DNA of 64,000 nt. Source: Paraflavisolibacter caeni. GTDB lineage: Bacteria > Bacteroidota > Bacteroidia > Chitinophagales > Chitinophagaceae. Shown here one piece after another: positions 17,141 through 55,673 of this stretch. How positions within the stretch are numbered: position 1 is the first letter of the stretch; the number at the start of each line of letters is the position of its first letter. A program made the translations under genes and the position numbers. The stretch covers positions 372,001-436,000 of the forward strand of contig NZ_JAOTIF010000001.1 of the NCBI RefSeq assembly GCF_025628885.1, read 5' to 3'. The notes beneath the pieces are model-generated. The model was given only the letters and a program-made list of their open reading frames with translations, was not told where the DNA came from and ran no database searches.

Positions 17141-17822
17141 CCATTTATCCCCTAAAGCTACTCCTACCCATCCACAACCAAAAACCTCTTGGCCGATTTG
17201 GCATAAAATGGCAGGAAATGACCGCTTTTGTCCGCTTCCCCTTCAGGTTTCCAGTAGGGATCCTTCGTACCTCAAGTATACCTGAAGCATACCATCAGTA
17301 TACCTAGAGTAGGACAACAGTATGCCTCCTTCGTTCCTAAACCTCAAAAAAGCATCTTTTCTTCCCTTTCTCAATCTCCAATAAAACCCCGACTCCTCCA
17401 TTAAAAAATCCTATTCATCCCTTTCTAATCGGGCAAATCCGCGGTTCATCTTTCGTTCCTCAGCCCTACCTGAGCCCTACTGAATCCATAGCTAAGCCTA
17501 GGAAAAGCCTAGAAAACCACTTTTACCCCACCAATCTCCTAATATCATTCCCCTCACCCCATTTTCAAATTGTCAAAACCTGTTCCGCTCCGCGGGGTTA
17601 TCTAATAATAATATCCCCATAGCCAGATCAACCTTTGACCAAAACAATCAGCATTCCAATCTACTTCTGGTTACCTCTTCCACAATAAACCCAAAATTTT
17701 TCCAAGGCATCGTTCCCGATAACGTTTGCGTAAAAAATTATGGGCCTATCAGCTTCTGTTTCTGGTAAATTAAATACACTTGCCTTTACAGTTCATCTAA
17801 AAGCCTTAATACATTCTTCCAT
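17141..17822. other. Intergenic region carrying 11-bp-period repeats, upstream of the pectin operon
   Basis: No gene is visible in these 680 bp. The left part holds the repeat blocks 17271-17336 and 17461-17515. The right part, upstream of the first pectinesterase, has a near-consensus -7 element TACACTTG around 17774, about 50 bases before the start codon, so the operon promoter is probably there. Confidence 0.45.
17271..17515. repeat. 11-bp-period repeat array A (two blocks)
   Basis: Six consecutive 11-mers at 17271-17336 begin CTCAAGTATAC, CTGAAGCATAC, CATCAGTATAC and then decay. A second block at 17461-17515 has five 11-mers with another word (CAGCCCTACCT, GAGCCCTACTG, AATCCATAGCT, AAGCCTAGGAA, AAGCCTAGAAA). 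The flank CCTTCGTAC immediately before the first block is shared with array B at 35 kb. Confidence 0.75.
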
Positions 17823-18782
17823 ATGATGAAATATTGTCTCCAGTTGATCCTGTGCTTGCTGTTGGTCTCTTCTTCAGTTTTCGCTAATGCAGTCTATGAT
17901 TTTATAGTAGCACAAGATGGCAGTGGCAACTTCAAAACAGTCCAGGAAGCCATCAACGCTGTTCCCGACTTCCGCAAAAAAGAAACAAGGATCCTGATCA
18001 AAAATGGTGTCTATAAAGAAAAGCTGGTATTAGCTGAAAGCAAGCAGTTTGTCACCTTTATTGGTGAAAGCCTGGACAAGACCATCATCACCTACGATGA
18101 TTACGCTCAGAAGAAAAACATCTTTGGTGAAGAAAAGGGCACTTCCGGCTCCTCAGGGTTTTACATTTATGGCCACAATTTCACGGCGGAAAATATTACT
18201 TTCCAGAATACAGCCGGGCCAGTAGGACAGGCCGTTGCCGTTTTTGTATCCGGCGACAGGGTGCAGTTCAAAAACTGCAGGTTTCTTGGTTTCCAGGATA
18301 CTTTGTATACCTACGGCCGCGAGAGCAGGCAATACTACAAGAATTGTTATATAGAAGGCACTGTAGATTTTATTTTCGGGTCTTCTACTGCCGTTTTTGA
18401 TAGTTGTACTTTATTTGGTAAAACATCCGGCTACTTCACTGCGGCTTCAACTCCTGAAAATAAAAAGTTTGGGTATGTGTTCCTGAACTGTCATCTGACA
18501 GGCAATGCTCCTGAAGCTTCATTCCTCCTGGGAAGGCCTTGGAGACCTTATGCTAAAACCGTTTTCATTAATTGCAGGCTGGATAAAATAGTGCGTGCTG
18601 AAGGCTGGAGCAACTGGAGTAATGCTGCTAATGAAAAGACGGCCTTTTACGCTGAATACAAAACATTTGGCGATGGCGCCGCTGCAGGTGACAGGGCTAC
18701 CTGGTCGCACCAGTTAACCGATTCAGAAGCAAACCTGTATACCCTGAAGAACATTTTCGGCGATTGGGAACCAACCAAATAA
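17823..18782 (+). CDS. Pectinesterase (carbohydrate esterase family 8)
   Basis: Removes methyl esters from pectin homogalacturonan. A 319-residue protein with a signal peptide ending near SSVFANA, so periplasmic or surface located. It is a right-handed beta helix with all CE8 signatures: the N-terminal VAQDGSGNFKTVQEAINAVP, QAVAV, FQDTLYT with the oxyanion-hole Gln, the catalytic Asp in DFIFGSSTAVF, and the Arg in LGRPWRPY. First gene of a five-gene same-strand run; the next gene, another CE8, begins 54 bp later after a short ATTCACC-type repeat. ATG 17823 is followed directly by a second ATG, either of which may be used. Confidence 0.93.
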   Translation: MMKYCLQLILCLLLVSSSVFANAVYDFIVAQDGSGNFKTVQEAINAVPDFRKKETRILIKNGVYKEKLVLAESKQFVTFIGESLDKTIITYDDYAQKKNIFGEEKGTSGSSGFYIYGHNFTAENITFQNTAGPVGQAVAVFVSGDRVQFKNCRFLGFQDTLYTYGRESRQYYKNCYIEGTVDFIFGSSTAVFDSCTLFGKTSGYFTAASTPENKKFGYVFLNCHLTGNAPEASFLLGRPWRPYAKTVFINCRLDKIVRAEGWSNWSNAANEKTAFYAEYKTFGDGAAAGDRATWSHQLTDSEANLYTLKNIFGDWEPTK

Positions 18783-18836
18783 ATTACCAATTGCCAATTC
18801 ACCATTGACCATCGTCCATTCACCATTCACCTTCAA
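18783..18836. repeat. Short-word intergenic repeat (CCATTCAC/CCATTGAC)
   Basis: The gap between the two pectinesterases is almost wholly made of variants of one word: CAATTGCCAATTCACC, CCATTGACC, CCATCGTCC, CCATTCACC, CCATTCACC. The same word recurs inside the 3' end of the gene at 16532-17140. Confidence 0.6.
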
Positions 18837-19838
18837 ATGAAGCAATTCATGTATAAACTATTGTTCCTTACCTTATTTTCCTTTTTTGTTGTTTGCACTT
18901 TTGCCCAGACTGTTAACTACCCATCCAGGTTCACCGTAGCTAAAGATGGGAGCGGCGACTTCAAGACCATCCAGGAAGCTGTGAATGCAGTGCGTGATCT
19001 TTCCCAACAGCAGGTAACTATTTATATCAAGAATGGCGTCTATAATGAAAAGCTGGTGATTCCTTCCTGGAAAAAAAGAATATCACTGGTTGGACAGAGT
19101 AAAGACAGTACGGTGATCTGCAATGACGATTATTCCGGCAAAGCTTACCCTGGAGGAAAGGATGCTTTTGGAAAAGATAAATTCACTACTTACACTTCAT
19201 ACACAGTGTTGGTACAGGGTGATGACTGCAGCATAGAAAACCTGTCCATCAAAAACACTGCGGGCAGAGTAGGACAGGCTGTAGCCCTGCACGTGGAAGG
19301 CGACAGGTTCGTAGCTGTCAACTGCATACTCACCGGCAACCAGGATACCTTATATACGGCAACCAACAATAGTCGCCAGTATTATAAAGACTGTTATATA
19401 GAAGGTACGACAGACTTTATCTTCGGTGAAGCCACTGTTGTGTTCCGGAACTGCACCATCAAAAGCCTGACCAATTCCTACATCACGGCTGCATCTACTA
19501 CTCCGATGCAGAAGTTTGGCTATGTCTTTTTTGATTGTAGGCTGGTTGCAGATTCCTCTGCAACTAAAGTTTTACTCGGAAGGCCCTGGAGACCGAATGC
19601 AAAGACTGTTTTTATCAATACGGAAATGGGCAGCCATATTCATCCTGTTGCCTGGGACAACTGGCGCAACCCGGAAAATGAAAGGACTGTTCTTTATGCA
19701 GAATACAAGAGCAGGGGAGAGGGGGCAAAAATCAAGGAAAGAGCGAAGTGGTCTAAACAATTGTCCCGCAGGGAGGTAAAAAAATATACCCTGGAAAAGA
19801 TCTTTAATTTAGAAGTTTCATGGATTCCAAGAGTGTAG
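18837..19838 (+). CDS. Pectinesterase (carbohydrate esterase family 8), second copy
   Basis: A 333-residue paralogue of the preceding gene with signal peptide ending VVCTFAQ. The CE8 motifs are intact: VAKDGSGDFKTIQEAVNAV, QAVALHVEGD, NQDTLYT, the catalytic DFIFGEATVVF and LGRPWRPNAKTVF. Relative to the first copy it has an insertion near residue 100 (GKAYPGGKDAFGKDKFTTYT), a loop near the substrate groove, so the two may prefer differently methylated pectin. It is followed by two esterases and an acetylesterase, which fits pectin side-group removal. Confidence 0.93.
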   Translation: MKQFMYKLLFLTLFSFFVVCTFAQTVNYPSRFTVAKDGSGDFKTIQEAVNAVRDLSQQQVTIYIKNGVYNEKLVIPSWKKRISLVGQSKDSTVICNDDYSGKAYPGGKDAFGKDKFTTYTSYTVLVQGDDCSIENLSIKNTAGRVGQAVALHVEGDRFVAVNCILTGNQDTLYTATNNSRQYYKDCYIEGTTDFIFGEATVVFRNCTIKSLTNSYITAASTTPMQKFGYVFFDCRLVADSSATKVLLGRPWRPNAKTVFINTEMGSHIHPVAWDNWRNPENERTVLYAEYKSRGEGAKIKERAKWSKQLSRREVKKYTLEKIFNLEVSWIPRV

Positions 19839-19878
19839 GTAGCTCATTCTTGCTATTAATTTTTCAACCCCTTTCAAT

Positions 19879-20805
19879 ATGTTGCGCTTTACGTTTTTGA
19901 TACTATTGGTTGGCTTTACTTTTTTGCAAGCAATGGCACAGGAGTTCATTCCACTTTGGCCAAAAGGAAAAATGCCGAACTCAAAGGGCATGAACCTGAA
20001 AGATAGCATTGCCAATGAAAGGGTCTACCGTGTGGGTACACCCGGCATGTATGCCTTCTTGCCATCCGCCCAGGAAAATAAAGGCGGGGCAGTGATCATT
20101 TGCCCTGGTGGTGGTTATGAACGATTGGCTTATGTCATCAGTGGTACCCAGTTGGCCAAATGGTTCAATACCATGGGCATGAGTGCTTTTGTTCTGAATT
20201 ACCGTTTGCCCAACTCCCCGGATCTGAAACAAAGAGAATTAGGCCCTTTACAGGATGTACAGAGAGCTATTCGTGTTGTACGTGCCAATGCATCCAAATG
20301 GGGCATCAAAGGCGATAAAATTGGCGTACAGGGCTCTTCTGCCGGAGGTCACCTGGCTGCCATGGCGGGTACGCAAACAAACGATGTTTCTGCTATTGGT
20401 GATTCATTGAATGCTATTTCTTTTCGACCTGATTTCATGATCCTGGTGTCCCCGGTGATTAACCTGGGGCCTTATGCACATGCAGGCAGCCGCAAGAACC
20501 TGTTGGGAGAAGATGCATCCAGTGAGCTCATAGAGAAATTCTCCCAGGAAACACAAGTGACCAGTACAACGCCGCCTGCCTTCCTGGTACATGCCTTTAA
20601 CGATAAAACAGTGAGTGCACGGAATAGCTTACTGTTCTATGGGGCTTTGCTGGAGAAAGGCGTATCAGCCAGCCTGCATATTTTCCCGCAGGGTGGTCAT
20701 GCTATTGCATTGCGCAATAATCCTGGTTCTACAGAACAATGGACGTCCTTATGTGAAGCCTGGATGATTGAAATGGGCATTATTCCTCAAACCTTGAATA
20801 AATAA
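19879..20805 (+). CDS. Exported alpha/beta-hydrolase esterase (BD-FAE/acetyl-esterase type)
   Basis: A 308-residue protein with a signal peptide (cleavage near AMAQ). The oxyanion-hole motif PGGGY lies at residues 76-80, the nucleophile elbow GSSAGGH has Ser154, an Asp lies in the C-terminal FNDKTVS loop, and the catalytic His is in PQGGHAI. This is the fold of small acetyl/feruloyl esterases of polysaccharide loci. Between pectinesterases and an acetylesterase, removal of acetyl groups from pectin is the likely job, but substrate is inferred. The gene starts 40 bp after the CE8 gene and ends 8 bp before the next esterase. Confidence 0.82.
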   Translation: MLRFTFLILLVGFTFLQAMAQEFIPLWPKGKMPNSKGMNLKDSIANERVYRVGTPGMYAFLPSAQENKGGAVIICPGGGYERLAYVISGTQLAKWFNTMGMSAFVLNYRLPNSPDLKQRELGPLQDVQRAIRVVRANASKWGIKGDKIGVQGSSAGGHLAAMAGTQTNDVSAIGDSLNAISFRPDFMILVSPVINLGPYAHAGSRKNLLGEDASSELIEKFSQETQVTSTTPPAFLVHAFNDKTVSARNSLLFYGALLEKGVSASLHIFPQGGHAIALRNNPGSTEQWTSLCEAWMIEMGIIPQTLNK

Positions 20806-20813
20806 AATAACAA

Positions 20814-21758
20814 ATGAAATTCCTGGTTGCCTGGGTATTGATGATACCTGTTCTTGTTACCGCACAAAGTATTCCAAGAGATACCTCCTTTACGGTTTAT
20901 GGCACTTATATCAAAGAAAGTAAGGGCCGGCCTTATATCCGGGTAGCACAACCGGCAATGCCTGAAGGCGTAAAGAGCAAAGAGAACATTATTTACAGTA
21001 CTATGGGTAACAGGGAGTTGTCTGCAGATGTGTTTTATCCTGCAAAGAAATCAAAGAAAGGGTATCCGGCAGTGGTCATGATCTTTGGAGGAGGATGGAG
21101 GTCCGGAGATAAATCTCAGAATGTTCCCATAGCGCAACAATTGGCAGCAAAGGGTTATGTGGCCATGACCATTGAATACCGGCTTTCACAGGAGGCTCAA
21201 TATCCTGCTGCCGTACAGGATGTAAAGGCGGCCATCAGGTGGCTCCGGGCGAATGCGAAACAATACAATATTGATAAAAGTAAAATTGCAACCTTAGGCA
21301 TGTCCGCAGGCGGACAGTTGGCTGCTTTGGCAGGTACAACTAATGGCATAGCAAAGTTTGAAGGCCCAGGTGGCAATGCAAAGCAGTCGAGTGATGTGGA
21401 GGCGATTGTAAATATTGATGGCACGCTTGCTTTCCATCACCCGGAATCGGTAGAAGGAAAAGCTGCTTCAGAGTTCTTAGGTGGCACTTACCAGGAAAAG
21501 CCGGAGGTATGGGAAGAAGCTGCTCCCCTGAATCATACAGGTAAGCATACGCCGCCCATTATTTTTATCAACAGCTCCATTCCCCGCTTTCATGCTGGTA
21601 GGGATGACATGATCAGGATTCTTGACAAGTATGGGATCTATCATGAAGAGCATACCTTACCCGACACACCGCATCCTTTCTGGTTCTTTCATCCATGGTT
21701 TGAACCTACAGTCAATTATACTGTTCAGTTTTTGGATAAGGTGTTCAAAAAGAAATAA
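20814..21758 (+). CDS. Exported alpha/beta-hydrolase esterase, second type
   Basis: A 314-residue protein with a short signal peptide ending VLVTAQ. Motifs: oxyanion hole FGGGWRSGDK (about 91-100), nucleophile GMSAGGQ with Ser164, and an HPFWFFHPWF region carrying the candidate catalytic His. It belongs to the same broad superfamily as its neighbour but is only distantly similar; the DADVFYPAKK-like segment and HPESVEGKAASEFLGG insertion are typical of BD-FAE-like carboxylesterases. Start is 8 bp after the previous stop, so the two are co-translated in one operon. Confidence 0.82.
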   Translation: MKFLVAWVLMIPVLVTAQSIPRDTSFTVYGTYIKESKGRPYIRVAQPAMPEGVKSKENIIYSTMGNRELSADVFYPAKKSKKGYPAVVMIFGGGWRSGDKSQNVPIAQQLAAKGYVAMTIEYRLSQEAQYPAAVQDVKAAIRWLRANAKQYNIDKSKIATLGMSAGGQLAALAGTTNGIAKFEGPGGNAKQSSDVEAIVNIDGTLAFHHPESVEGKAASEFLGGTYQEKPEVWEEAAPLNHTGKHTPPIIFINSSIPRFHAGRDDMIRILDKYGIYHEEHTLPDTPHPFWFFHPWFEPTVNYTVQFLDKVFKKK

Positions 21759-21812
21759 GCAATTGACGATATTCCTAAATATCGAAATCACAAAATCAGT
21801 AATTTAATCATC

Positions 21813-22577
21813 ATGTCACATCGTTTTTTTAAAGTATTCGGACTGTTCAGTGTCCTCTTCCTCTTGTCTTTCACAATGGCTCCCAGGAAGATCAAAGTAT
21901 ATCTCATTGGTGATTCTACCATGTCGATCAAGCAATCGAAAGCCTATCCCGAAACTGGCTGGGGTATGCCGTTTGTTTACTTCTTCGATTCAACTGTTGA
22001 AGTGGACAACCGTGCGCAAAACGGCCGCAGTACCAGGACGTTTATTGAGGAAGGCCGCTGGCAGCCTGTGACTGAGAACCTTCAAGCAGGTGATTATGTC
22101 TTCATCCAGTTTGGTCATAATGATGAAGTGCCTACAAAGAAAAGTTATACTACTGAAGATGCTTTCAAGGCCAACCTGGCGAAGTTTATAAATGAAACAA
22201 GAGCCAAAAAAGCAACTCCTGTTTTGATCACGCCTGCAGCACGCAGATCATTTGATTCTACCACAGGCAAGATCAAGGGTACTCACGATATATATTCAGC
22301 TCTTGTACGTTCTGTTGCTGTAGCATACAAAACACCTTTAATTGATTTGGACAAGCAAAGCCAGGACTTATTGCAGTCATTTGGTGTAGAAGGCTCAAGA
22401 CTTTTATTCAACCAATTGAAACCCGGTGAACATCCCAATTATCCCAAAGGTGTTGAAGACAATACACACTTCAATGAATTGGGAGCGCGTAAAATGGCGC
22501 AGATCGTATTGGCTGATATAAAAGACCTGAAACTTGAATTGGCAGATAGGATTGTAAATTCCGGAGTGAAGAAATGA
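21813..22577 (+). CDS. Rhamnogalacturonan acetylesterase-like SGNH hydrolase (CE12-like)
   Basis: A 254-residue exported SGNH hydrolase. Block I GDSTMS carries the nucleophile Ser35, block II has NGRSTRTF, block III QFGHND, and block V DNTHFN provides Asp216 and His219. The family removes acetyl groups from the rhamnogalacturonan I backbone of pectin. Last gene of the pectin run; it lies 54 bp after the esterase. With two CE8 enzymes and two esterases it makes an all-esterase operon; no lyase or glycoside hydrolase of pectin is in the window. Confidence 0.88.
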   Translation: MSHRFFKVFGLFSVLFLLSFTMAPRKIKVYLIGDSTMSIKQSKAYPETGWGMPFVYFFDSTVEVDNRAQNGRSTRTFIEEGRWQPVTENLQAGDYVFIQFGHNDEVPTKKSYTTEDAFKANLAKFINETRAKKATPVLITPAARRSFDSTTGKIKGTHDIYSALVRSVAVAYKTPLIDLDKQSQDLLQSFGVEGSRLLFNQLKPGEHPNYPKGVEDNTHFNELGARKMAQIVLADIKDLKLELADRIVNSGVKK

Positions 22578-22644
22578 TGTGACTCAGCATCCCGGTGCAG
22601 TATACCTGAAGAAGTATGCTGCACCCGGAATGCTAATGATTTTA

Positions 22645-23559
22645 TTAGTTGGCAAGATAAACCTGCACTTTATTTTCTTCCGATAGCTTCATATGTTTTG
22701 ACAGCTGATTGATGAAGCTTGCCATATAGGATGGAATTGTTTTATTTTTTAACACACCTGCATACCAGGTTCTCTTAAGGCCCCTCCTGGTTATTTTAAC
22801 TGCATTCAACTCTTTAGACTTTAAATAACGGGCCGCCACCCATTGCGGTTGTACCGTTACTCCTATTCCTGCTTTCACCATTTCAAGGATAGCCTCTGTC
22901 AGCATCACCTGGTATAACTTGACAGGTTTTCCATTCTGAAAAATAAGGTTGTACATTCTACTTTCCTCAAGGGGAATATTATACATGATGTATGATTCCT
23001 GTTGAAAAGCTTCTATCTCTATCCATTTACGCTTTGTCCACGGATGTCCTGGTGACACAATGGCAAAAAGTTCATCTGAGAACAAAGGCGTATATACAAG
23101 GTTTTTGTTTTTGTTGTCTTCAAAAATGCCAACATCTATTTTGTTTTCTAAAAGATTTGCTAAGGCATGCCTTGTCGCTTCTGCCTTTATGTGTATATCT
23201 ACTTTTGGATAAAGAGCTTGAAATGCTCTTAGAAATCCTGATAACCAGGGATAGGAAGTATAACATTCCGTGCTGAGCCGGATATCACCACAATCCTTTT
23301 CCGTCATCAAACGGATCTGCCTTGTGGTTCTTTCCACTTCATCCAGTATACGTTGGCTCGATAACAATACAACCTCACCTTCCTTCGTAAGCAGCATTTG
23401 CTTGTTTTGACGGATAAATAGTTGTGCCTGGAAATGATCTTCAATTTCTCTTAACTGATGACTTAATGCTGATTGCGAGAGATAAAGGTTTTCAGCAGCC
23501 TTTGTAAGGCTTTTTGTGCGGGCAACTTCCTGGATCATTTTAAGATGTCGAAGTTCCAT
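22645..23559 (-). CDS. LysR-family transcriptional regulator
   Basis: A 304-residue regulator with an N-terminal winged helix-turn-helix (residues 1-60: LKMIQEVARTKSLTKAAENL, then LSQSALSHQLREIE) and a two-lobe effector-binding domain (about 90-295). It converges with the pectin operon and is divergent from the PepSY-like gene at 23667; the 107 bp between them contain an inverted repeat and a consensus promoter. It may control the divergent gene, itself, or the pectin operon; position favours the first two. Effector unknown. Confidence 0.9.
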   Translation of the reverse strand: MELRHLKMIQEVARTKSLTKAAENLYLSQSALSHQLREIEDHFQAQLFIRQNKQMLLTKEGEVVLLSSQRILDEVERTTRQIRLMTEKDCGDIRLSTECYTSYPWLSGFLRAFQALYPKVDIHIKAEATRHALANLLENKIDVGIFEDNKNKNLVYTPLFSDELFAIVSPGHPWTKRKWIEIEAFQQESYIMYNIPLEESRMYNLIFQNGKPVKLYQVMLTEAILEMVKAGIGVTVQPQWVAARYLKSKELNAVKITRRGLKRTWYAGVLKNKTIPSYMASFINQLSKHMKLSEENKVQVYLAN

Positions 23560-23560
23560 A

Positions 23561-23612
23561 TGTATGAATATTGCTAATGGTTATTACAAAAATAATTCAA
23601 TTTGCTCATACA
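23561..23612. promoter_or_regulatory. Candidate LysR operator: inverted repeat TGTATGA...TCATACA
   Basis: TGTATGA at 23561-23567, just upstream of the LysR start, and its reverse complement TCATACA at 23606-23612. A direct repeat CTAATGGTTA lies at about 23574 and 23616. The right arm lies within the spacer between the -33 and -7 elements of the rightward promoter, so binding could control both directions. Confidence 0.4.
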
Positions 23613-23630
23613 TACTAATGGTTAATTTTG
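23601..23630 (+). promoter_or_regulatory. Bacteroidota-type promoter of the PepSY-like gene
   Basis: TTTG (23601-23604), an 18-base spacer and TAATTTTG (23623-23630) match the -33 TTTG / -7 TAnnTTTG consensus of Bacteroidota. Transcription would begin near 23637, leaving a leader of about 30 bases. Confidence 0.65.
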
Positions 23631-23666
23631 GTTCAGCGAAAAGCCTTTAACCTCAAAATCTTATTT

Positions 23667-24113
23667 ATGAAACTGATTCTTTTAACCTTCGCATTGCTGA
23701 TAACAGAAGTGCTTTATTGTGCAACTCCGGACATGAGTGATACTATTGAAAAAGACTTCAGGAATGCTTTTCCCAAAGCCGAGCAGGTAAAATGGTATAA
23801 GACTGATTTGATGTACGAGGTCGTTTTTATAAATGACCAGGTGAGCTGTAGAATGAGGTTTTTGCTCAACGGTACAATTGATAGAACCATTCGTTATTAT
23901 ACTGAAGAACACTTGCCTCCGTTTATCTTGTCCAAGATCAAAAGAAAATTTGCTGGCAAAAAAGTATATGGTGTTACTGAAGATACCTCAGAGGACGGAG
24001 TTACTTACTACATTGTCCTGGAAGATGAAGATCACTGGTTGCATATTCAATCAGATGCAATTGGTAATACCATCATTACCAATCAGTATAAAAAGAATAG
24101 GAATGTAAAATGA
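23667..24113 (+). CDS. PepSY-like exported protein
   Basis: A 148-residue protein starting at ATG 23667, which gives a clean signal peptide (MKLILLTFALLITEVLYC). The mature part carries a PepSY-like pattern: an N-terminal helix ending FRNAFPKAEQVKWYKTD, a strand YEVVFINDQVSCRMRF, then helix HLPPFILSKIKRKFAGKKV and strands GVTYYIVLEDEDHW. Such proteins are periplasmic and of unknown role. It has its own promoter and is divergent from the LysR gene. Its stop is 6 bp before the end of the convergent membrane protein gene. Confidence 0.65.
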   Translation: MKLILLTFALLITEVLYCATPDMSDTIEKDFRNAFPKAEQVKWYKTDLMYEVVFINDQVSCRMRFLLNGTIDRTIRYYTEEHLPPFILSKIKRKFAGKKVYGVTEDTSEDGVTYYIVLEDEDHWLHIQSDAIGNTIITNQYKKNRNVK

Positions 24114-24119
24114 AGAATA

Positions 24120-35268: not shown

Positions 35269-35334
35269 CTCAAGTATACCTGAAGCATACCTGAAGCATA
35301 CCTGAAGTATACCTGAAGCACACCTGAAGCACGA
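35269..35334. repeat. 11-bp-period repeat array B
   Basis: Six perfectly phased 11-mers: CTCAAGTATAC, CTGAAGCATAC, CTGAAGCATAC, CTGAAGTATAC, CTGAAGCACAC, CTGAAGCACGA. Preceded by CCTTCGTAC as in array A and followed by a TTTTGACC-containing flank that array C shares in inverted orientation. This is the best preserved copy in the window. Confidence 0.85.
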
Positions 35335-48410: not shown

Positions 48411-48510
48411 GATGAGAAAGAATAGTGGAGGAGATGGGGATTTAGAGATTTCGGAATTTTGAGATTTGGAATTCGAGGTTGAGGGGATTAGTGGTCAAAA
48501 TCTGTTTCGT

Positions 48511-48598
48511 GCTTCAGGTATGCTGTTAGTATGCTGTAAGTATGCTTCAGGTATGCTTGATCTATACTGAAGGTATTGAGTCGGTACGGCTTAGGGCG
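48511..48598. repeat. 11-bp-period repeat array C
   Basis: Eight phased 11-mers: GCTTCAGGTAT, GCTGTTAGTAT, GCTGTAAGTAT, GCTTCAGGTAT, GCTTGATCTAT, ACTGAAGGTAT, TGAGTCGGTAC, GGCTTAGGGCG. The word is the inverted counterpart of that in array B (ATACCTGAAGC), and the flank GGTCAAAATCTGTTTCGTG mirrors the end of array B. Confidence 0.8.
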
Positions 48599-48736
48599 GG
48601 CGGAGGAATGAAGGAAGCGAGACGGCTGAGGGGTAGGGCAGAACAAGATTATTATTGTTAAAGAAGCAGAAAGACCATTTAGAAAGAGATTCAGGTTTAA
48701 TCTTTGAGACTTAATAATTGTAGATAATTTTTATTT

Positions 48737-49126
48737 ATGGCAGAAAAAGAAAAACTGCGTCTTGATAAATATTTATGGGCTATCAGGTTGTTTAAAACAC
48801 GAACGATGGCTGCTGCTGCGTGCGATACCGGAAAAGTGAAGCAAAATGGTACTTCGGTAAAAGCCGCAAAGAATGTATCTGTAGGTGATGAATATGAGGT
48901 GAAGACTGAAGCTAAAAAGTGGGTGGTCAAGGTGACGGGGTTATTGCATAACCGTATGGCTTATTCTGAAGCTATCAAGTATTATATAGATGTGACGCCC
49001 CAGGAGGAACTGGACAGACTCCAGTTCCAGGCAGCTTCCTTCCATACCGGTAAACGTCCCAGTAAGATTGGGAGGCCTACTAAGAAGCAAAGAAGGGAAC
49101 TGGATGAGTTTATGGAAGAAGAATAG
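48737..49126 (+). CDS. S4-domain RNA-binding protein (Hsp15-like)
   Basis: A 129-residue protein with an S4 domain at about 5-65 (LRLDKYLWAIRLFKTRTMAA, CDTGKVKQNG, then VGDEYEVK) and a basic C-terminal tail (KRPSKIGRPTKKQRRE). In E. coli Hsp15 binds stalled 50S subunits carrying nascent chains; the same ribosome-rescue role is likely here by family. Length is close to the usual 133. It converges with the DUF5686 gene, with 7 bp between stops. Confidence 0.85.
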   Translation: MAEKEKLRLDKYLWAIRLFKTRTMAAAACDTGKVKQNGTSVKAAKNVSVGDEYEVKTEAKKWVVKVTGLLHNRMAYSEAIKYYIDVTPQEELDRLQFQAASFHTGKRPSKIGRPTKKQRRELDEFMEEE

Positions 49127-49133
49127 TGGTTTT

Positions 49134-51584
49134 TTAGAACCATCTATTCCTTCTTTTATCCCAAGTGGTGAAGCCTACTTTGAACTGGACAGGATTTCTG
49201 AATTGGTTGGCAGCAGCGCCTACCACATAAACACCTATCTTGAATTTATCCAATGGGTTGAAGGGGGATTCAAAAGCTCTTTCAATGCCTACGAACAATT
49301 CGGCATACGTCAGGTTGCGTTCCTGTGCATATAGAAAACCACCACCACCAACTTCGCGTAACTGCAGCTTTTTGAACAGCGGGATCTTGTTCAGGAACAG
49401 GCCATTGAATTCATGGAAGATATGACCTTCATAAAAGCGTTTGAAGACAGGGAAGGTAGAGTCGAGAGACTGGAATGCCTTATGGGGGTTCATGAACATA
49501 AGCGGGTCGCCGCGGCGCTGGAACTTATAGTCAATCAGTCTCAAGTCAGTTGTGTTTAAGTATTCACCTGATTTGATGGTATATTTTGAAACGCCTAGTA
49601 ACCCGAGGTTCATCATTTGTTCTACTCCAAACTCCAGGTAGTCAAAGTCTATTTTGCTACTTGCAATACCGGAAATACCTTTTTCCCACTGTACATAAAA
49701 GGTCGGGAGCTTTGATCCTAGAATGACCTTCTCTTTTGGCTCGCGCCTGTAACGTTGTGCAGGCGTGTATTGCAGTTTCACTTTACTATAAACGGCATTG
49801 TAAGGCTGAAAAGTGATTGCACTGTTATTATCCAAATCCAATCTATCGCCCAAAAGACTGTCTACCAGTTTGCCGGTTTTATATTCGTTAACGGAACGGC
49901 GAAAAGCGATCTGGGCATCAGTATTGAGCACAAGTCCGTTTATGATTTCAATGCCGTGGCCTGCACCTATATAGTTATTCAAATAGATGTTGTTGCGTTT
50001 GATCATGTTGATCCAGGCATCTCCCTCATAGATAAAAGCAAAGTCTCTTCCAGCTGACATTCTGAAAACACCACGGTTGTATGGATTGTACATCCTTGAC
50101 AGCTCGATGTTTCCATTCACATCTCCATTACGAATACCATAGCTTAGGTCGGTGTTTACATTCAGGTTTTTACGAGAAGAAAATGTTTTAGAGTAATATG
50201 CAAAAGCACTGAGACGACCTCCACCAAAAGCAAAAGGTTTGTATAAAGTAATGAGTGGTGACAGGTGCCAGGTGCGCTCTTTTCGATGATCGTGGAAGGA
50301 TTGACCAAAAAAGCCTAGTTTTTTCCATGTGATCTTGTTGATCAATTTATCGACAGAGTCGAGATAGACGTTAGAAAGGGCTACCTGTTGCATGCTGTCC
50401 TGGTAATGTGAAAAAATGGCTTCTTTATCTGTTAGAGGCCGACTGCGTACCGTTTGCCAGTATGTAGTATCTCTTTCATAAGCTTCAGCTGCGGTGGCGC
50501 TTAGTTCATTGGTAAAGTGGCGCTTGTCAAAACGTTTGTTGAGTTGGTGATCATAATAAGTGACTTCCGTTTGTCCTGCATATGTTTTCCTGCTACTGCC
50601 GGTTTTATAGGTAAACTGTTGACGGGTAAGCATCCAAGCAGTATTATTGACGAAGCTGAAGTCCTGTTCAACTTCAAAAAAGTCGAATTCCTGTAAGTGA
50701 TATTTGGGAAAACGGAAGCGGGCGTGCAGCACTACCCATGCACTGTCTGAAACAGTAAGTTCACCTTCAATGGTTGCATTGGTGACTTGTAAGGGTTTTA
50801 CAGAAAATGTATAGATACGGTGCTTTCCAAACCGCTGAACTTTAATGGTTTTGAATTTATAAGCTACCAGCCCGTTGTAGCTAATGGGAGACACGAAGGG
50901 AGTAGGGGATATTGTTGGTACTTTTACCAGATTGTCATAAAAGTTAAAGTCGCCTTCTGTAACGGATTGGTAAAAGAGTCTTTTGGTGTTGCCACCTTTC
51001 TTCACAGCCAGTCTTTCTTCCCTGATCTTGTTTTCTCCCTCTTTATCTAATTGCAATAATATTTCGGCCATTGACATGCCCTGCCAGTCGTTGTCATTTT
51101 TGAGGCTGCTCGTTACTTGTTCCTGATCTTTTGATCCGGAAGTTTCCTGAACTGCTTTGATATATACTTTACAGGAGTAAGCTCCGGCTGCTGCCTGTAT
51201 GCTGTCTTTTTTCCGGATGATCTGCCGCATTATCTCTTCAGCCCTGTCTCTTACCTTGGCTTTGACTACAACTTCTGAAAGATTTTGTGATTCTTCTTCT
51301 AGTGTAATGTCTTTTTGGAGGTTATCATTTACAATAAGAGGAACTTCCATGTTTTTGTAGCCAATCATTGAAAGAGCCAGATGGTAATTGCCTGCAGCCA
51401 GGTTGAGCTCGTAGCTTCCGTCTTGCCTGGTCATCAACCCGGCCTGGGTCTCTTTTACCCTGATGGTAACGTAAGGTAAAGGTTCCTGTTTGCTGTTAAC
51501 AATTTTTCCATGCACTTTAAATATTTGCGCCTCAACATTAACTGCAGAAAGTAAAATAATAAAGAATAATAAATATTTGTACAT
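49134..51584 (-). CDS. DUF5686 outer-membrane protein with carboxypeptidase-like N-domain
   Basis: An 816-residue outer-membrane protein. ATG 51584 gives a proper signal peptide (MYKYLLFFIILLSAVNVEA). A carboxypeptidase-D-like domain lies at about 20-110 (VHGKIVNSKQEPLPYVTIRV, GSYELNLAAGNYHLALSMIG), then the DUF5686 part (DRAEEIMRQIIRKKDSIQAA, YKFKTIKVQRFGKHRIYTF) with a beta-barrel-like C-terminus ending WDKRRNRWF. Common in Bacteroidota; function unknown. The gene is single. Confidence 0.87.
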   Translation of the reverse strand: MYKYLLFFIILLSAVNVEAQIFKVHGKIVNSKQEPLPYVTIRVKETQAGLMTRQDGSYELNLAAGNYHLALSMIGYKNMEVPLIVNDNLQKDITLEEESQNLSEVVVKAKVRDRAEEIMRQIIRKKDSIQAAAGAYSCKVYIKAVQETSGSKDQEQVTSSLKNDNDWQGMSMAEILLQLDKEGENKIREERLAVKKGGNTKRLFYQSVTEGDFNFYDNLVKVPTISPTPFVSPISYNGLVAYKFKTIKVQRFGKHRIYTFSVKPLQVTNATIEGELTVSDSAWVVLHARFRFPKYHLQEFDFFEVEQDFSFVNNTAWMLTRQQFTYKTGSSRKTYAGQTEVTYYDHQLNKRFDKRHFTNELSATAAEAYERDTTYWQTVRSRPLTDKEAIFSHYQDSMQQVALSNVYLDSVDKLINKITWKKLGFFGQSFHDHRKERTWHLSPLITLYKPFAFGGGRLSAFAYYSKTFSSRKNLNVNTDLSYGIRNGDVNGNIELSRMYNPYNRGVFRMSAGRDFAFIYEGDAWINMIKRNNIYLNNYIGAGHGIEIINGLVLNTDAQIAFRRSVNEYKTGKLVDSLLGDRLDLDNNSAITFQPYNAVYSKVKLQYTPAQRYRREPKEKVILGSKLPTFYVQWEKGISGIASSKIDFDYLEFGVEQMMNLGLLGVSKYTIKSGEYLNTTDLRLIDYKFQRRGDPLMFMNPHKAFQSLDSTFPVFKRFYEGHIFHEFNGLFLNKIPLFKKLQLREVGGGGFLYAQERNLTYAELFVGIERAFESPFNPLDKFKIGVYVVGAAANQFRNPVQFKVGFTTWDKRRNRWF

Positions 51585-51983
51585 ACACAGATCCCGCCAA
51601 TTGCGGCGCAAATTTCTTTGTTTTATCGTTTAATTAGTCATAAGATTAAGTTATTGTAGAGGTGGGGAATGATGGGAATGGAGGGAATGACGAATAGAGA
51701 AAGGGAGATAATAGATGACAGATGTTAGAGTGGAGCTGACAGGGTAAGAGAAGGCAGTTAAAGGGGATATTGTGATATTTGAATATTGAGGGTGAGGAGT
51801 GTTTAATAAAAGGGTTTTTAATGTGATGTGAGGGAGAACATTCATAAGGTTGGGTTGGCAATTTAAAATTTGTCGTTTGAATGATTAGTGTACTTTTGTG
51901 GCGGTAAATCCTACTTTTTGATTATCATTTATATCCGCAGCCTCTGAAACGATTTTTGCAACAATTCAAAAGAGGAGGCAATC
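51585..51983. other. Intergenic region with purine-rich low-complexity DNA and the first ABM promoter
   Basis: About 400 bp. 51655-51760 is purine-rich on the plus strand with words like GATAATAGATGACAGATG, also seen at 55.4 and 58.2 kb. The right end carries a promoter and leader of the first ABM-like gene. Short frames on the minus strand are artefacts of the low-complexity stretch. Confidence 0.55.
51869..51898 (+). promoter_or_regulatory. Promoter of the first ABM-like gene
   Basis: TTTG (51869-51872), an 18-base spacer and TACTTTTG (51891-51898), a perfect match to the Bacteroidota consensus. The leader would be about 80 bases and ends in a Shine-Dalgarno AGAGGAGG. Confidence 0.7.
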
Positions 51984-52292
51984 ATGTATGTACGCTTAAC
52001 CTACTGCGAGTTTGTTCCTTCCAGAATTAAGGACGCAAAAGGAGTTTATATGGAAGAAATTGTTCCAGTTGTTTCATCGCAGAAAGGTTTGATCGATCTC
52101 ATGTTATTAGAACCAACCGAGCCTTCGAATGAATATATTGCAGTAACTTTATGGAAGACGAAAGCTGATTCGGATGCTTATGTATTCAGCGGAACATTCC
52201 ATAGAATGGTCACAAAGATTGAAAGTTTTCTTGCAAAGCCGCCGTTCGTGAAAGCGTATTATGCGGAAAAGTTGTTAGTTCCTACGCTATGA
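51984..52292 (+). CDS. ABM-superfamily-like small protein, copy 1
   Basis: A 102-residue protein with the ferredoxin-like pattern of antibiotic-biosynthesis-monooxygenase (ABM) dimeric barrels: strand MYVRLTYCEF, helix with VYMEEIVPVVSSQKGLID, strand YIAVTLWKTKADSDAY, helix FHRMVTKIESFL and strand FVKAYYAEKLLVP. No heme or cofactor residue is identifiable. By hand alignment about 46 of 102 positions match copy 2 without gaps. A perfect Shine-Dalgarno (GAGGAGG, about seven bases before ATG) is unlike nearly all other genes here. It has its own promoter and terminator. Confidence 0.75.
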   Translation: MYVRLTYCEFVPSRIKDAKGVYMEEIVPVVSSQKGLIDLMLLEPTEPSNEYIAVTLWKTKADSDAYVFSGTFHRMVTKIESFLAKPPFVKAYYAEKLLVPTL

Positions 52293-52387
52293 TATTATTC
52301 AAATAATTGTAATTATCTAACCTTCTGATCATTGGAAAATATGATGGTATATTGATAAGTGGCCAGAAGGAATCAGGTAATCAAAAT

Positions 52388-52421
52388 AAAAGTCCCGTCA
52401 GAAATGCGGGGCTTTTATTTT
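52388..52421 (+). terminator. Terminator of ABM-like gene 1
   Basis: AAAAGTCCCG (52388-52397) pairs with CGGGGCTTTT (52407-52416) around GTCAGAAAT-type loop bases with one mismatch, followed by ATTTT. Confidence 0.75.
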
Positions 52422-52472
52422 AGCCTTCAGCAGAAGCAATTGTTTTAATTTTTGATCATGGTCATTGAAATA

Positions 52473-52505
52473 TTGTTGCTGCGCATCTACCTTTGCTATT
52501 CCAAT
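52473..52505 (+). promoter_or_regulatory. Promoter of ABM-like gene 2
   Basis: TTG (52476-52478), a 19-base spacer and TACCTTTG (52498-52505), a perfect -7 element. The leader of about 60 bases ends in AAAAGGAGG before the ATG at 52572. Confidence 0.65.
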
Positions 52506-52571
52506 CCCCGCCTTGACAACAAATTGATCTGACCTAGAATAGTCTTCACTTCACTTAAAAAGGAGGTAATT

Positions 52572-52880
52572 ATGTATGTACGTTTAACTTATTGCAAGTT
52601 TTCTCCTGCAAACCTTCAAGAAGCTTTAAGAGTTTACAAGGAAGAAATTATTCCAATTCTTTTAAAACAACAAGGACTTATTGATGTCCAAATGATGGAG
52701 CCAGTAGATCAAACAGAAGATTATATTTCTATGACACAATGGAGTTCTAAAGCCGATGCGGATCTATACGATTCCAGTGGTACATATAGAAAACTGGTTT
52801 CAATGCTGGAAAATTATTTTGCAGAAAAGCCTGTATTGAAGGTTTATAATGTAGAAAAAGTAATGATTCCAACTGCCTAA
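52572..52880 (+). CDS. ABM-superfamily-like small protein, copy 2
   Basis: A 102-residue tandem paralogue of the gene at 51984 (about 45% identical by hand, no gaps), with MYVRLTYCKFSPANLQEALR, YKEEIIPILLKQQGLIDVQM, YISMTQWSSKADADLY and a closing VEKVMIPTA strand. AAGGAGG stands seven bases before ATG, the best Shine-Dalgarno in the window. It is a self-contained unit with its own promoter and terminator, so the pair is not an operon. Function unknown; ABM folds often act in stress defence or small-molecule oxidation. Confidence 0.75.
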   Translation: MYVRLTYCKFSPANLQEALRVYKEEIIPILLKQQGLIDVQMMEPVDQTEDYISMTQWSSKADADLYDSSGTYRKLVSMLENYFAEKPVLKVYNVEKVMIPTA

Positions 52881-52899
52881 AGAACTGTAACTAAAGATT

Positions 52900-52931
52900 A
52901 AAGCCCCGGAATTTCTGCCGGGGCTTTTGTT
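52900..52931 (+). terminator. Terminator of ABM-like gene 2
   Basis: AAAGCCCCGG (52900-52909), loop AATTTCTG, CCGGGGCTTTT (52918-52928), then GTTT. Strong stem. Confidence 0.88.
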
Positions 52932-53199
52932 TATTCTAAATTTTACCATCCTATTATCCTACTTTAATTCATGGTGGTTACTCTATATATGAGGAGCGAA
53001 CGTAAAGTGTTAGCTGATATTATGATTAGGAATGTCTATGTAAGTTGCCTGTTTTGTACATTTTTCTAATATCAGCAGTGATTTTGCCAATTTTTAACAC
53101 TGCAAATCCCAGGTATTCATCAGGTAATTATTTCAATGACTTTCTTTGCACTCAGTAAAAAAAACAATAAACAAGTCTCCATTACTAAAACCTAATTGC
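52929..53199. other. Leader region of the OmpA-family gene
   Basis: About 270 bp, AT-rich, with no gene. A CTAAAAC element is placed eight bases before the ATG at 53200, like the motif of the 12-16 kb cluster but with one change. No -7 consensus was recognised with confidence. Confidence 0.35.
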
Positions 53200-54069
53200 A
53201 TGAACAAGTCCTATTTAATGGCGATTGCTGCAGGATCTTTTTTGTTCGTATCCTGTGTCAGTGGTAAAAAATTAAAGAAAGAACAGGCTCGCTATTCAGA
53301 ACTGAATTCGTTTTATACGAAAGTGCAGCAAGATCTGAAAACCTGCCGTGAAGATGCTGAGGCTATGGCCCGTTTGAAAGCCCAGTATGAATCTGAAATT
53401 GCGAACCTGAACAAGCAGGTTGCCTTCCTGAAAGACAATAACAATGTGGTAGTAACCCAGTTGAAAGACCTTTCAGTAATTTCCAGCGCCCAAGCTGAAA
53501 GTATCAAAAAGTCTATGGACAATATAGGAGCAAAAGACTTATATATCCAGGATCTGCAAAAGAGCATGGCTCGTAAGGATTCATTGAATATGGCATTGGT
53601 GATGAACCTGAAGAGCGCGTTGAATGACATTAATGACAGCGATGTAGAAATTAAAGTTGAAAAGAGCGCAGTATATATTTCTATTTCTGACAAGATGTTG
53701 TTTAAAACCGGAAGCTATGACGTATCTGACAAGGCTATGACTGTGTTGGGTAAAGTAGCACAAGTGTTGAACAGCCGTCCTGAAATTGAGTTTTTGGTTG
53801 AAGGACATACAGATAATGTGCCCATCAAAGGTGGCCCCATTGCTGATAACTGGGATTTGAGTGTAAAGAGAGCTACTTCTGTAGTACGTATTTTGCAAAA
53901 CCAGTTCAAGATCGATCCTAAGCGCATGACTGCCGGTGGCCGTAGCGAATACCTGCCAATAGCTGATAACAGCGATGCTTCAGGAAGAGCAGTTAACCGT
54001 CGTACACGCATTGTGATTTTACCTCAGCTTGATCAATTCTTCAAGTTGTTGGAAAAGCCACAGTCGTAA
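53200..54069 (+). CDS. OmpA-family lipoprotein
   Basis: A 289-residue envelope protein starting at ATG 53200, where the lipobox FVSC (Cys about residue 19) fits a lipoprotein signal. A coiled-coil-like helical region follows at 25-125, then an OmpA-like peptidoglycan-binding domain at about 165-280: MLFKTGSYDVSDKAM, LVEGHTDNVPIKGG, the Asp/Arg ligands in NWDLSVKRATSVVRIL and NRRTRIVILP. It anchors the outer membrane to peptidoglycan. Single gene closed by a strong terminator. Confidence 0.9.
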   Translation: MNKSYLMAIAAGSFLFVSCVSGKKLKKEQARYSELNSFYTKVQQDLKTCREDAEAMARLKAQYESEIANLNKQVAFLKDNNNVVVTQLKDLSVISSAQAESIKKSMDNIGAKDLYIQDLQKSMARKDSLNMALVMNLKSALNDINDSDVEIKVEKSAVYISISDKMLFKTGSYDVSDKAMTVLGKVAQVLNSRPEIEFLVEGHTDNVPIKGGPIADNWDLSVKRATSVVRILQNQFKIDPKRMTAGGRSEYLPIADNSDASGRAVNRRTRIVILPQLDQFFKLLEKPQS

Positions 54070-54144
54070 GTTAGTGTTTTACAAAATGGCATCATTCATC
54101 ATTCATCATTGATTATTGGTTATTGGTTTCATTTTGAATATAAA

Positions 54145-54180
54145 ATAAAAGCCATCCGGGTTGCGGATGGCTTTTATTTT
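54145..54180 (+). terminator. Terminator of the OmpA-family gene
   Basis: AAAAGCCATCCG (54147-54158) pairs with CGGATGGCTTTT (54164-54175) around GGTTG, followed by ATTTT. The A/T flanks on both sides would also serve the convergent serine hydrolase gene. Confidence 0.87.
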
Positions 54181-54196
54181 GGTGATCAATTCATTT

Positions 54197-55330
54197 TTAT
54201 AAACTCTTGCCCCATTTGACCAGGGCATCTACTTCGGCAGGGGCTCCATTGATCCTTAACTCGGAGCGCTGTTTGCCTAAGCGTACAAGTACAACCTTTT
54301 TTGAGGGAATTACAATAATGTATTGGCCTAAGATACCGCGGGCGTAAAAGATGGGTTCATCTGCAGGGAATATCCACCACTGGTAACCGTAATAATTGCA
54401 AGGTTCTCCTATTTCATCAGGGATCATACAGGGAGTGACTGATTTGATAAAATAATCTTTAGTGATGATCTCCTGCCCCTTCCAGCGGCCGCTATCGAGC
54501 ATGAGTTGGCCAATGCGGGCAAAGTCGCGTGTATTGGAGTTAAAGCAGCAGTATGCTTTTTCGTGCCCACCTTCTTTGTCTGTGCTCCACAATGCCGGAT
54601 GTTCTGCTCCCAGGGGCTGCCATAATTTTTTGGAAGCGTATTGGCTTAGTGACATGCCAGTAGCTTTTTCCAAAAGCAGTCCTAATAATTGTGAATCTCC
54701 ACTTTTATATGAATGGAAGGTTCCTGGTTTGTGAATGATATTAACGTCTGTTGCTACTTTGTAAACATCGCTTCCATAATACATTTCTGTGGTAACAGAA
54801 AGAGGATTGGCGTAGGATTCGTCAAAGTCGCTGCCACTGCTCATGGTGAGGAGGTCTACTATACGAACTTTGTTTTTCTCCCCGGTTCTAAATTCGGGCA
54901 GGTAATTTCCTATAGGCTCGTCCAGTGATTTAATCTTTCCTTCTTTTAAGGCAATGCCTATGAGCAGGCTTGTGATGCTTTTGGTGACTGAAAAGGAACC
55001 GGAATAAGATGCCTGGTCGTATCCATCCCAATATCTTTCAAATACAATTGAATCGTTTTTTACTGCCAGTAATCCAATAGTATTGAGTCCTTCGAGCATT
55101 GATAACAGGGGAGCGGGTAAATTCTTTTTATTATAAGAGGTAGCAGATGACCATGGTTGAGGAGCTGCTGCAGCTACTGTATTGTTGGTGAATACCTGGT
55201 AATCATCAATGCCTGCGAAATTATACCATATTGCTTTGAACAGGTATGTTCTTCCTGATGCAACTGCATAAATACTGCCGATCAAAACCATAGAAAGTAG
55301 AATAAGGAGGATGCTTTTTAAGATTTTCAT
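54197..55330 (-). CDS. Serine hydrolase of the beta-lactamase class C / penicillin-binding-like family
   Basis: A 377-residue protein with an N-terminal membrane anchor (about 7-25). The active-site SxxK is Ser114-Val-Thr-Lys117 in SGSFSVTKSITSLLIG. A second motif with Tyr is in HSYKSGDSQLLGLLLEK, and a GHE-type region lies near the C-terminus (YARGILGQYIIVIPSKK). Such proteins are D-aminopeptidases, esterases or cell-wall enzymes; true beta-lactamase activity is not indicated. Single gene. Confidence 0.85.
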   Translation of the reverse strand: MKILKSILLILLSMVLIGSIYAVASGRTYLFKAIWYNFAGIDDYQVFTNNTVAAAAPQPWSSATSYNKKNLPAPLLSMLEGLNTIGLLAVKNDSIVFERYWDGYDQASYSGSFSVTKSITSLLIGIALKEGKIKSLDEPIGNYLPEFRTGEKNKVRIVDLLTMSSGSDFDESYANPLSVTTEMYYGSDVYKVATDVNIIHKPGTFHSYKSGDSQLLGLLLEKATGMSLSQYASKKLWQPLGAEHPALWSTDKEGGHEKAYCCFNSNTRDFARIGQLMLDSGRWKGQEIITKDYFIKSVTPCMIPDEIGEPCNYYGYQWWIFPADEPIFYARGILGQYIIVIPSKKVVLVRLGKQRSELRINGAPAEVDALVKWGKSL

Positions 55331-55673
55331 ATCGCAGGGGTTTTGAATAGAAATTTACTCAATTATTTGGAGATTACTAAAGGGGGAGAGAAGATGATAG
55401 ATGTTAGATGATAGATGGTAGATGGCGGGCAGGCGTTGATGGGGTGTTGGAGCGCAGTTGGTACGGAGTAGACAGGGAGTTCCTATGGAGTTAGACCGCA
55501 GTAATGTCTCTATAAAGTCACTATAAGGTCTCTATAACATCTCTATAAGGTCCCTATAAGCCTGGGAGAAAATGTAAAATTTGGCATTAAAAAGTACAAT
55601 ATAAAACTGGGGTTGGGAAAGGAAAGATGCGAAATTAAGTAGGAAAGAAAAGAACTATGCTGATTTGGATAGA
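55331..55673. other. Intergenic region with repeat array D
   Basis: About 340 bp. GATAGATGTTAGATGATAG-type words lie at 55391-55425, and the 11-bp array at 55457-55560. No gene is visible. Confidence 0.6.
55457..55560. repeat. 11-bp-period repeat array D
   Basis: Four 11-mers (GTTGGTACGGA, GTAGACAGGGA, GTTCCTATGGA, GTTAGACCGCA; 55457-55500), a 5-base slip, then five better preserved ones (GTCTCTATAAA, GTCACTATAAG, GTCTCTATAAC, ATCTCTATAAG, GTCCCTATAAG; 55506-55560). The word differs completely from arrays A-C, but the 11-bp period is the same. Confidence 0.8.

What the first reader, a model, noticed from the sequence alone, without database searches (positions are those of the whole stretch)
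17271..55560. Four intergenic arrays with an exact 11-bp period but different words
Seen directly: arrays at 17271-17515, 35269-35334, 48511-48598 and 55457-55560 are made of consecutive 11-mers that stay in phase over 5-9 units. Arrays A-C share the word CTGAAGCATAC (C inverted) and flanks (CCTTCGTAC; TTTTGACC next to GCACGAAA), while array D has the unrelated word GTCTCTATAAG. What is conserved is the period, close to one DNA turn, more than the sequence. They are not CRISPR arrays, and the period is not a multiple of three. This suggests helically phased protein-binding sites, a curved-DNA element, or a mobile-repeat family copied by slippage. I do not know a name for it.
Basis: seen in the sequence. 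Interest (0 to 1): 0.75.

Follow-up and report, generated by a model that had tools for sequence, protein, structure and literature searches.

The report
DNA repeats spaced one helix turn
Short DNA repeats spaced exactly one turn of the double helix sit beside many members of an unstudied family of small bacterial genes, and in some genomes are also scattered alone, which suggests an unrecognised protein-and-DNA partnership.

Summary
The four arrays are real: at lag 11 the window has 3 strong clusters, against a mean of 0.0 in 200 surrogates. The A-C word has 141 genome hits and 0 read backwards.

They belong to something larger. Array A lies directly upstream of a multicopy gene for a basic protein. 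Homologues, remotely linked to Pfam DUF6266, occur across Bacteroidota. Lag 11 marks the upstream DNA of 64 of 131 family genes and of 0 of 83 other genes in the same loci. Words differ between gene lineages; the period stays 11 bp (10 in a few).

In some genomes the gene's own word is also scattered gene-free. One word, taken from upstream of a DUF6266 gene, gave 43 hits (control 0) at 15 intergenic places, one being the gene itself; 14 aligned copies form a bounded block of about eight in-phase units.

Best reading: iteron-like sites bound cooperatively on one DNA face by the encoded protein. Association, phase and dispersal are shown; binding, autoregulation and mobility are inferred. Array D is not separate: elsewhere its units run in register into other words.

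The parts
16532..17140 (-). P0001, 202-aa basic protein, one of about 25 copies in this genome; diverged branch of the KYPDM family
   Evidence: 27 matches in the genome, some partial, one the distant gene L246; 14 copies, first 150 residues, 91 pairs: dN/dS 0.12; aligned with homologues L035-L037; no Pfam or NCBIfam hit
17197..17237 (.). conserved block GGCATAAAATGGCAGGAAATGACCGCTTTTGTCCGC between gene and array, with about 10-bp internal repeats
   Evidence: p-distance 0.04-0.06 among 14 copies
17258..17338 (-). array A main block; in gene orientation GGAACGAAGGG, five divergent units, GGTACGAAGGA (7 units of 11 bp)
   Evidence: p-distance 0.03-0.14
17436..17518 (.). array A second block (CCTACCTGAGC-like units)
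   Evidence: similar block in L015, L017, L018, L022, L029
35260..35336 (+). array B, gene-less; TTCGTACC .. GCACGAAA ends, TACCTGAAGCA units; hairpin on the minus strand (z -6.2)
48506..48587 (-). array C, gene-less, inverted copy of the A/B word
55435..55575 (-). array D, gene-less; TTATAGAGACC-like units followed in register by TTACTGCGGTC, TAACTCCATAG, GAACTCCCTGT, CTACTCCGTAC
   Evidence: L292

Best explanation
The arrays are iteron-like recognition elements for small basic proteins of a superfamily that includes Pfam DUF6266. One protein subunit reads about one helical turn (11 bp, in some lineages 10). Equal spacing puts successive subunits on the same face of the DNA, so that they can bind cooperatively as a row. 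Each gene lineage has its own word. The array beside the gene, usually upstream and in a few downstream, probably autoregulates it. In some genomes the same word also occurs alone as short, discrete, intergenic elements (about four core units plus flanking in-phase units) that have multiplied and are probably read by the same protein in trans. SHOWN: the exact period, its association with the gene family, purifying selection on the protein and conservation of the array, phase kept while words change, and gene-free copies of the gene's own word. INFERRED: that the encoded protein binds the array, the autoregulation, and how the elements spread.
For: Association: 64 of 131 family upstream regions at lag 11 against 0 of 83 controls, Fisher p about 1e-17; 71 of 131 with lag 10 or 11. 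Pfam-selected DUF6266 genes: 6 of 16 at lag 11 and 3 of 16 at lag 10, one in both; 4 of the 16 were already in the larger set, but none of the six. Four loci without an upstream array (L084, L093, L098, L102) have the ATCCTACGTTT/AACGTAGGAT word repeated downstream. Lags 12, 13 and 15-19 have 0-1 of 131. Word follows gene lineage: Mantel r 0.54, p 0.001; similarity equals the shuffled-column null below 25% protein identity and is 0.80 at 70-95%. Proteins: first 98 residues median pI 10.0, mean net charge +9.4, strongly hydrophobic N-terminus in 0 of 131; one clade fused to a winged helix. Selection: dN/dS 0.12 with dS 0.71; array p-distance 0.03-0.14. Trans relation: word read upstream of a DUF6266 gene, then 43 hits (0 control) at 15 intergenic places of that genome, 14 without the gene; P. 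frigiditerrae 62 hits against 1. Phase: anchors of different words are 10 mod 11 apart in 5 of 6 elements, 6 mod 11 in 3 of 5; units 8 apart match 0.42 in phase against 0.14 out of phase in L030, 0.33 against 0.24 in L310, 0.33 against 0.22 in L013.
Against: No binding data. 67 of 131 family upstream regions have no lag-11 array at the threshold used. Dispersal is not general: with the AACGWARGATR pattern 5 of 13 genomes (G285, G286, G289, G290, G291) clearly exceed their control and 8 do not; with the ATCCTRGGGT pattern 5 of 7 do. No PDB structure matches the basic domain convincingly, so DNA binding rests on charge, winged-helix fusions and the array. Word-lineage correlation is also expected from co-inheritance, and 7 of 30 unlike same-genome pairs share word similarity at or above the null's 95% point. 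Dispersed elements show no promoter preference (co/div/conv 11/5/4; 7/5/3), which speaks against a simple regulon. In the phylum search only 1 of 7 strong matches has lag 11, and that is the window's own genome. The loci are not phylogenetically independent.
Confidence: 0.58

Rival explanations
1. The arrays are recognition ends of a miniature mobile element moved by an unidentified transposase; the DUF6266-type gene is a passenger or helper and does not itself read the units.
For: Bounded elements with unrelated flanks; about 25 gene-bearing copies in the window's genome, 5 of 12 read sharing one gene-side end; copy numbers like those of REPINs.
Against: No target-site duplication evident by eye in 24 elements; the array-gene link holds in genomes with few family genes; no other gene family recurs in more than 3 of 46 loci; no His among the invariant or nearly invariant protein columns.
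Confidence: 0.23
2. The arrays act as RNA or cruciform hairpins, and 11 bp reflects the A-form RNA helix.
For: Chitinophaga arrays are near-perfect long palindromes (z -8.5 to -15.6); seven Niastella/Flavihumibacter arrays z -3.6 to -6.7; own L005, L024 and array B z -4.3, -7.1 and -6.2 on the better strand.
Against: Two of two Pedobacter arrays do not fold (z 0.3 to 1.8), nor do arrays A and D (z -0.5 to 1.0); some arrays have a 10-bp period; no Rfam match at gathering score in the window.
Confidence: 0.07
3. Neutral minisatellites made by replication slippage.
For: Tandem units; length differences in whole units; neighbouring units more alike than distant ones.
Against: Does not predict one period across unrelated words, placement beside one gene family, about four core units in most dispersed copies, or array distances far below synonymous divergence.
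Confidence: 0.04
4. Binding sites for a general nucleoid protein, or intrinsically curved DNA.
For: Helical spacing and intergenic position.
Against: A/T tracts depleted in arrays; unlike paralogues in one genome mostly carry unlike words.
Confidence: 0.04

Closest known systems
parC/ParR partition site of plasmid R1 (type II)
   Same: Direct repeats upstream of the genes, two sets of five, 22 bp holding two of them; each ParR dimer binds one repeat, DNA wraps a protein superhelix and the promoter is repressed (passages of PMC4949242 and PMC5016525).
   Different: No motor gene or other recurring neighbour; one query protein found no plasmid or phage record; dispersed chromosomal arrays; words vary between gene lineages.
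REPIN-RAYT
   Same: Gene with its repeat in the non-coding flank plus a dispersed extragenic population of that repeat (passages of PMC3116915).
   Different: No HUH/Y1 motif seen in the protein alignments; the repeat is a phased tandem array, a hairpin only in some lineages.
BrickBuilt MITE of Porphyromonas gingivalis
   Same: Bacteroidota; tandem units inside a dispersed intergenic element with leader and tail (abstract and outline of PMC4596501).
   Different: 23-bp unit, reported from one species; no cognate gene in the abstract.
Pfam DUF6266 (PF19781)
   Same: Distant members of the family score over its cut-off, and some carry upstream arrays.
   Different: KYPDM-type, ~189-aa and ~227-aa proteins scanned have no DUF6266 hit; the family entry gives no function.

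Membership tests
REPIN-RAYT | Gene encodes an HUH/Y1 (TnpA-REP) transposase | tested here: not met
   No His among invariant or nearly invariant columns of A3 or A4; no transposase family in the Pfam, NCBIfam and PHROGs tables shown
REPIN-RAYT | Repeat of the gene's flank dispersed in intergenic DNA of the same genome | tested here: met
   G291, G298, G416 and others; but 8 of 13 genomes not above control
REPIN-RAYT | Element is a REP doublet forming a hairpin | tested here: inconclusive
   Hairpins in Chitinophaga, Niastella and some own arrays, not in 2 of 2 Pedobacter arrays
parC/ParR partition site | About 11-bp direct repeats upstream of the binding protein's gene | tested here: met
   64 of 131
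parC/ParR partition site | Operon with a motor gene | tested here: not met
   No neighbour family in more than 3 of 46 loci; same-strand ORF within 60 bp downstream in 0 of 38
parC/ParR partition site | Ribbon-helix-helix binding protein | tested here: inconclusive
parC/ParR partition site | Protein binds the repeats | not testable with these tools
   needs EMSA or footprinting
DUF6266 (PF19781) | Score over the Pfam cut-off | tested here: not met
   39 members of A3 and 8 further proteins: no DUF6266 hit; of 9 distant proteins 4 are over the cut-off (L262, L263, L266, L267); link through profile A4 is remote (E 8.9e-5 to 4.6e-9 for genes also matched by PF19781)
CRISPR | Repeats separated by unique spacers | tested here: not met
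   Units are contiguous 11-mers
A-tract curved DNA | Phased A/T tracts | tested here: not met
   Tracts depleted in arrays

The most novel reading that the evidence does not exclude
DUF6266-superfamily proteins are a phylum-wide class of helical-phase readers. Each protein lineage co-evolves with its own word, and what is inherited is a spatial code (one subunit per turn) more than a sequence. Gene-free copies are a replicating population served in trans by a single gene: a counterpart of REPIN-RAYT without a transposase, which may shape chromosome folding or be copied by a new mechanism.
Probability: 0.38. Interest if true: 0.92.

Novelty: categorically new. Interest (0 to 1): 0.83.

Why it matters
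It links an unannotated protein superfamily (DUF6266 is in no paper of the library searched) to a DNA target that can be read from sequence alone: take the array beside the gene, then look for its copies in the genome. That makes function directly testable by binding, ChIP and deletion in ordinary soil bacteria. If the dispersed arrays are copied in trans, this would be a second, unrelated solution to the REPIN-RAYT arrangement; if they are bound in place, a chromosome-organising or regulatory system defined by helical phase, with words free to change.

Full report
WHAT IS THERE. The four arrays are real and periodic at 11 bp. In the window lag 11 gives 3 clusters in 44-base windows at 70% identity, against a mean of 0.0 in 200 block-Markov surrogates; lag 7 gives 2 (simple repeats) and lag 22 gives 2 (harmonic). 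In 240 kb of the same genome not chosen by hits, lags 11 and 22 lead with 3 clusters each and no other lag exceeds 1; at the looser 60% threshold that sample does not separate lag 11 (5) from lags 6 (6), 7 (5) and 15 (4). The A-C word occurs 141 times in the 7.01-Mb genome (up to 3 mismatches) and 0 times read backwards. In 57 relatives (up to 2 mismatches) it gives one hit in each of three and none in the rest.

THE GENE BESIDE THE ARRAY. Array A lies immediately upstream of a 202-aa gene on the minus strand (16532-17140). The genome holds 27 matches to it, some partial, and the same gene-plus-array arrangement recurs at 12 of the 25 distinct array loci printed (L008, with a shortened gene, L009, L015, L017-L020, L022, L023, L025, L028, L029). 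It has no Pfam or NCBIfam hit. Fourteen copies compared over their first 150 residues give dN 0.085 and dS 0.71, ratio 0.12. In the roughly 330 bp compared upstream of a fixed point in the gene, array columns differ by 0.03-0.14 (lowest in the first units) with a gap fraction of 0.00-0.01, the GACCGC block by 0.04-0.06, and most of the rest by 0.13-0.28. So protein and array are both conserved far beyond synonymous sites; gene conversion could contribute.

THE ASSOCIATION IS GENERAL. Homologues at 35-40% identity led to a family with a KYPDM motif: 38 of 244 genomes of the taxonomic family match the profile A2, and 46 named loci were fetched (Cnuella, Lacibacter, Flavihumibacter, Chitinophaga, Niastella, Pedobacter and others). 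In the 400 bp upstream, lag 11 passes in 24 of 45 loci and lag 22 in 14, while no other lag exceeds 3; a control stretch 1,000-1,400 bp upstream gives 0 of 40 at lag 11, and downstream DNA 4 of 46. Those four (L084, L093, L098, L102) lack an upstream array and carry the ATCCTACGTTT / AACGTAGGAT word downstream. Proteins without KYPDM also have arrays with unrelated words, for example AAAGACGAACG and GAGGACCCAAA: 18 of 31 at lag 11. At phylum scale 30 of 296 genomes match profile A4. Of 29 usable upstream regions there, 11 pass at lag 11: 10 of 22 weak matches and 1 of 7 strong ones, the latter being the canonical gene of the window's own genome (L246). Four of nine distant proteins scanned score over the Pfam DUF6266 cut-off. 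Genes picked by the Pfam model alone gave 6 of 16 at lag 11 and 3 of 16 at lag 10, one in both; four of these 16 (L274, L276, L279, L288) are genes already seen, but all six lag-11 cases are new (one, L278, was read in a frame away from the expected match). Pooled and deduplicated, with 300-bp upstream regions, lag 11 is present in 64 of 131 family genes and in 0 of 83 other genes of the same loci, Fisher p about 1e-17; lag 10 or 11 in 71 of 131. Nearly half have no array at this threshold, and related loci are not independent.

WHAT IS CONSERVED IS THE TURN. Word similarity rises with protein identity (Mantel r 0.54, p 0.001) and falls to the shuffled-column null (0.478 against 0.477) below 25% identity; of 30 unlike pairs (under 40% identity) inside four genomes, about 23 lie below the null's 95% point and 7 at or above it. 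Periods are 11 bp, and 10 bp in some: winged-helix fusions L036, L047, L118 and L221 carry ACGTAGGATG-like units every 10 bp. Lags 12, 13 and 15-19 stay at 0-1 of 131; lag 21 (8 of 131) is at the control level (4 of 83). In composite elements of the window's genome phase survives a change of word: TTATAG to ACGAAACAG is 153, 164, 175, 175 and 186 bp (10 mod 11) in five of six elements and 194 in the sixth; CCTTCGTACC to TTCGACCATCC is 160, 171 and 182 (6 mod 11) in three of five. Units eight apart are still 42% identical in phase and 14% out of phase in L030 (23 units); the contrast is weaker in L310 (0.33 against 0.24) and L013 (0.33 against 0.22). Array D belongs to the same system: at L310 its units continue in register into the other words.

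GENE-FREE COPIES. In some genomes the word beside a gene is also scattered without it. Pedobacter frigiditerrae (G291) has 62 hits against 1 control, at about 21 places, while the family profile finds 3 genes; Niastella populi (G298) has 27 against 0. This is not universal: of 13 genomes searched with the first pattern 5 are clearly above control, of 7 with the second 5 are. As a forward test I took the word upstream of the one Pfam-scored DUF6266 gene of G416, in another taxonomic family: 43 hits against 0, at 15 places, and none in three other genomes. All 15 are intergenic by ORF calling, one being the gene's own array; 11 of 15 have exactly four units by the matching rule; neighbours are co-directional 7, divergent 5, convergent 3. 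The earlier set of 20 arrays from four genomes gave 11, 5 and 4, with one array overlapped by a 100-aa ORF. Aligning the 14 gene-free G416 elements shows a bounded block of about eight in-phase units with unrelated sequence outside; 14 P. frigiditerrae elements show four strong core units and weaker flanking units. G416 has a second, weaker family gene (L247).

THE PROTEIN. The conserved part is about 95 residues: short strands and three helices in the AlphaFold model (mean pLDDT 87.6, pTM 0.57). It is strongly basic (median pI 10.0, mean net charge +9.4, n = 131) and none of 131 has a strongly hydrophobic N-terminus. It occurs alone, fused to a winged helix like the C-terminal one of Fic proteins, or fused to a beta-sandwich domain. 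No solved structure resembles the basic domain convincingly. In 46 loci no other gene family recurs in more than 3, and 0 of 38 genes have a same-strand ORF starting within 60 bp downstream. One family member gave no match in the plasmid or phage collections.

HOW IT MOST LIKELY WORKS. A small basic protein reads one turn per subunit and binds a row of units cooperatively on one face of the DNA, as ParR does on parC (passages). The array ends a median of 78 bp before the start codon, with -7-like motifs denser between it and the gene, which fits autoregulation. Dispersed copies are probably read by the same protein. Shown: periodicity, gene association, selection, phase through word change, gene-free copies of the gene's word. 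Inferred: binding, autoregulation, copying mechanism. Hairpins occur in some lineages (Chitinophaga palindromes, z -8.5 to -15.6) but not in two Pedobacter arrays or in arrays A and D, so they cannot be the common principle.

COMPARISON AND NOVELTY. It works like an iteron site and is organised like REPIN-RAYT, but a tested defining feature of each is missing (no motor partner; no HUH transposase signature). I therefore rate it categorically new as a system, while the physical principle, phased cooperative binding, is known. The searches named under Tried and rejected found no description in print.

Noticed in passing
contig ends C6, C9, C11, C14, C22, C26, C28, C36, C56, C78 of the window's genome (L319-L322, L325-L334): Ten contig ends that were read share an identical 72-bp insertion-sequence end, each followed by AATCTCTATAA (the last word may be part of the end itself); 7 of 10 continue into further array-D units. 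C3 has the same end but was not read. A diverged copy (81%) lies beside an IS110-family transposase (PF01548, PF02371; L335:2661-3698). An IS110-type element appears to insert into array D.
   Followed up: partly
downstream of the gene in L116, L117, L118, L119: The four winged-helix-fused genes among the named loci are each followed by repeats of TGGGCTCA or TTGGCTCAT about every 21 bp, roughly two turns.
   Followed up: partly
window 18797-18835, 54090-54110, 55392-55424, and loci L005, L013, L024, L030: 7-bp and 14-bp simple repeats (ATTCACC, CATCATT, AGATGAT) and CCAAACTTCAAACT-like stretches lie near the elements and give a separate lag-7 signal.
   Followed up: no
L246:1495-1788 (contig C45): The host also has a short KYPDM gene of the usual type with its own array GTATAGCTTAA upstream (21/22 at lag 11); similar GTATAGCTGAA units occur in dispersed elements.
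   Followed up: partly
upstream of the gene in L088, L089, L090, L092: Chitinophaga arrays are long near-perfect palindromes with arms of about four 11-bp units.
   Followed up: partly
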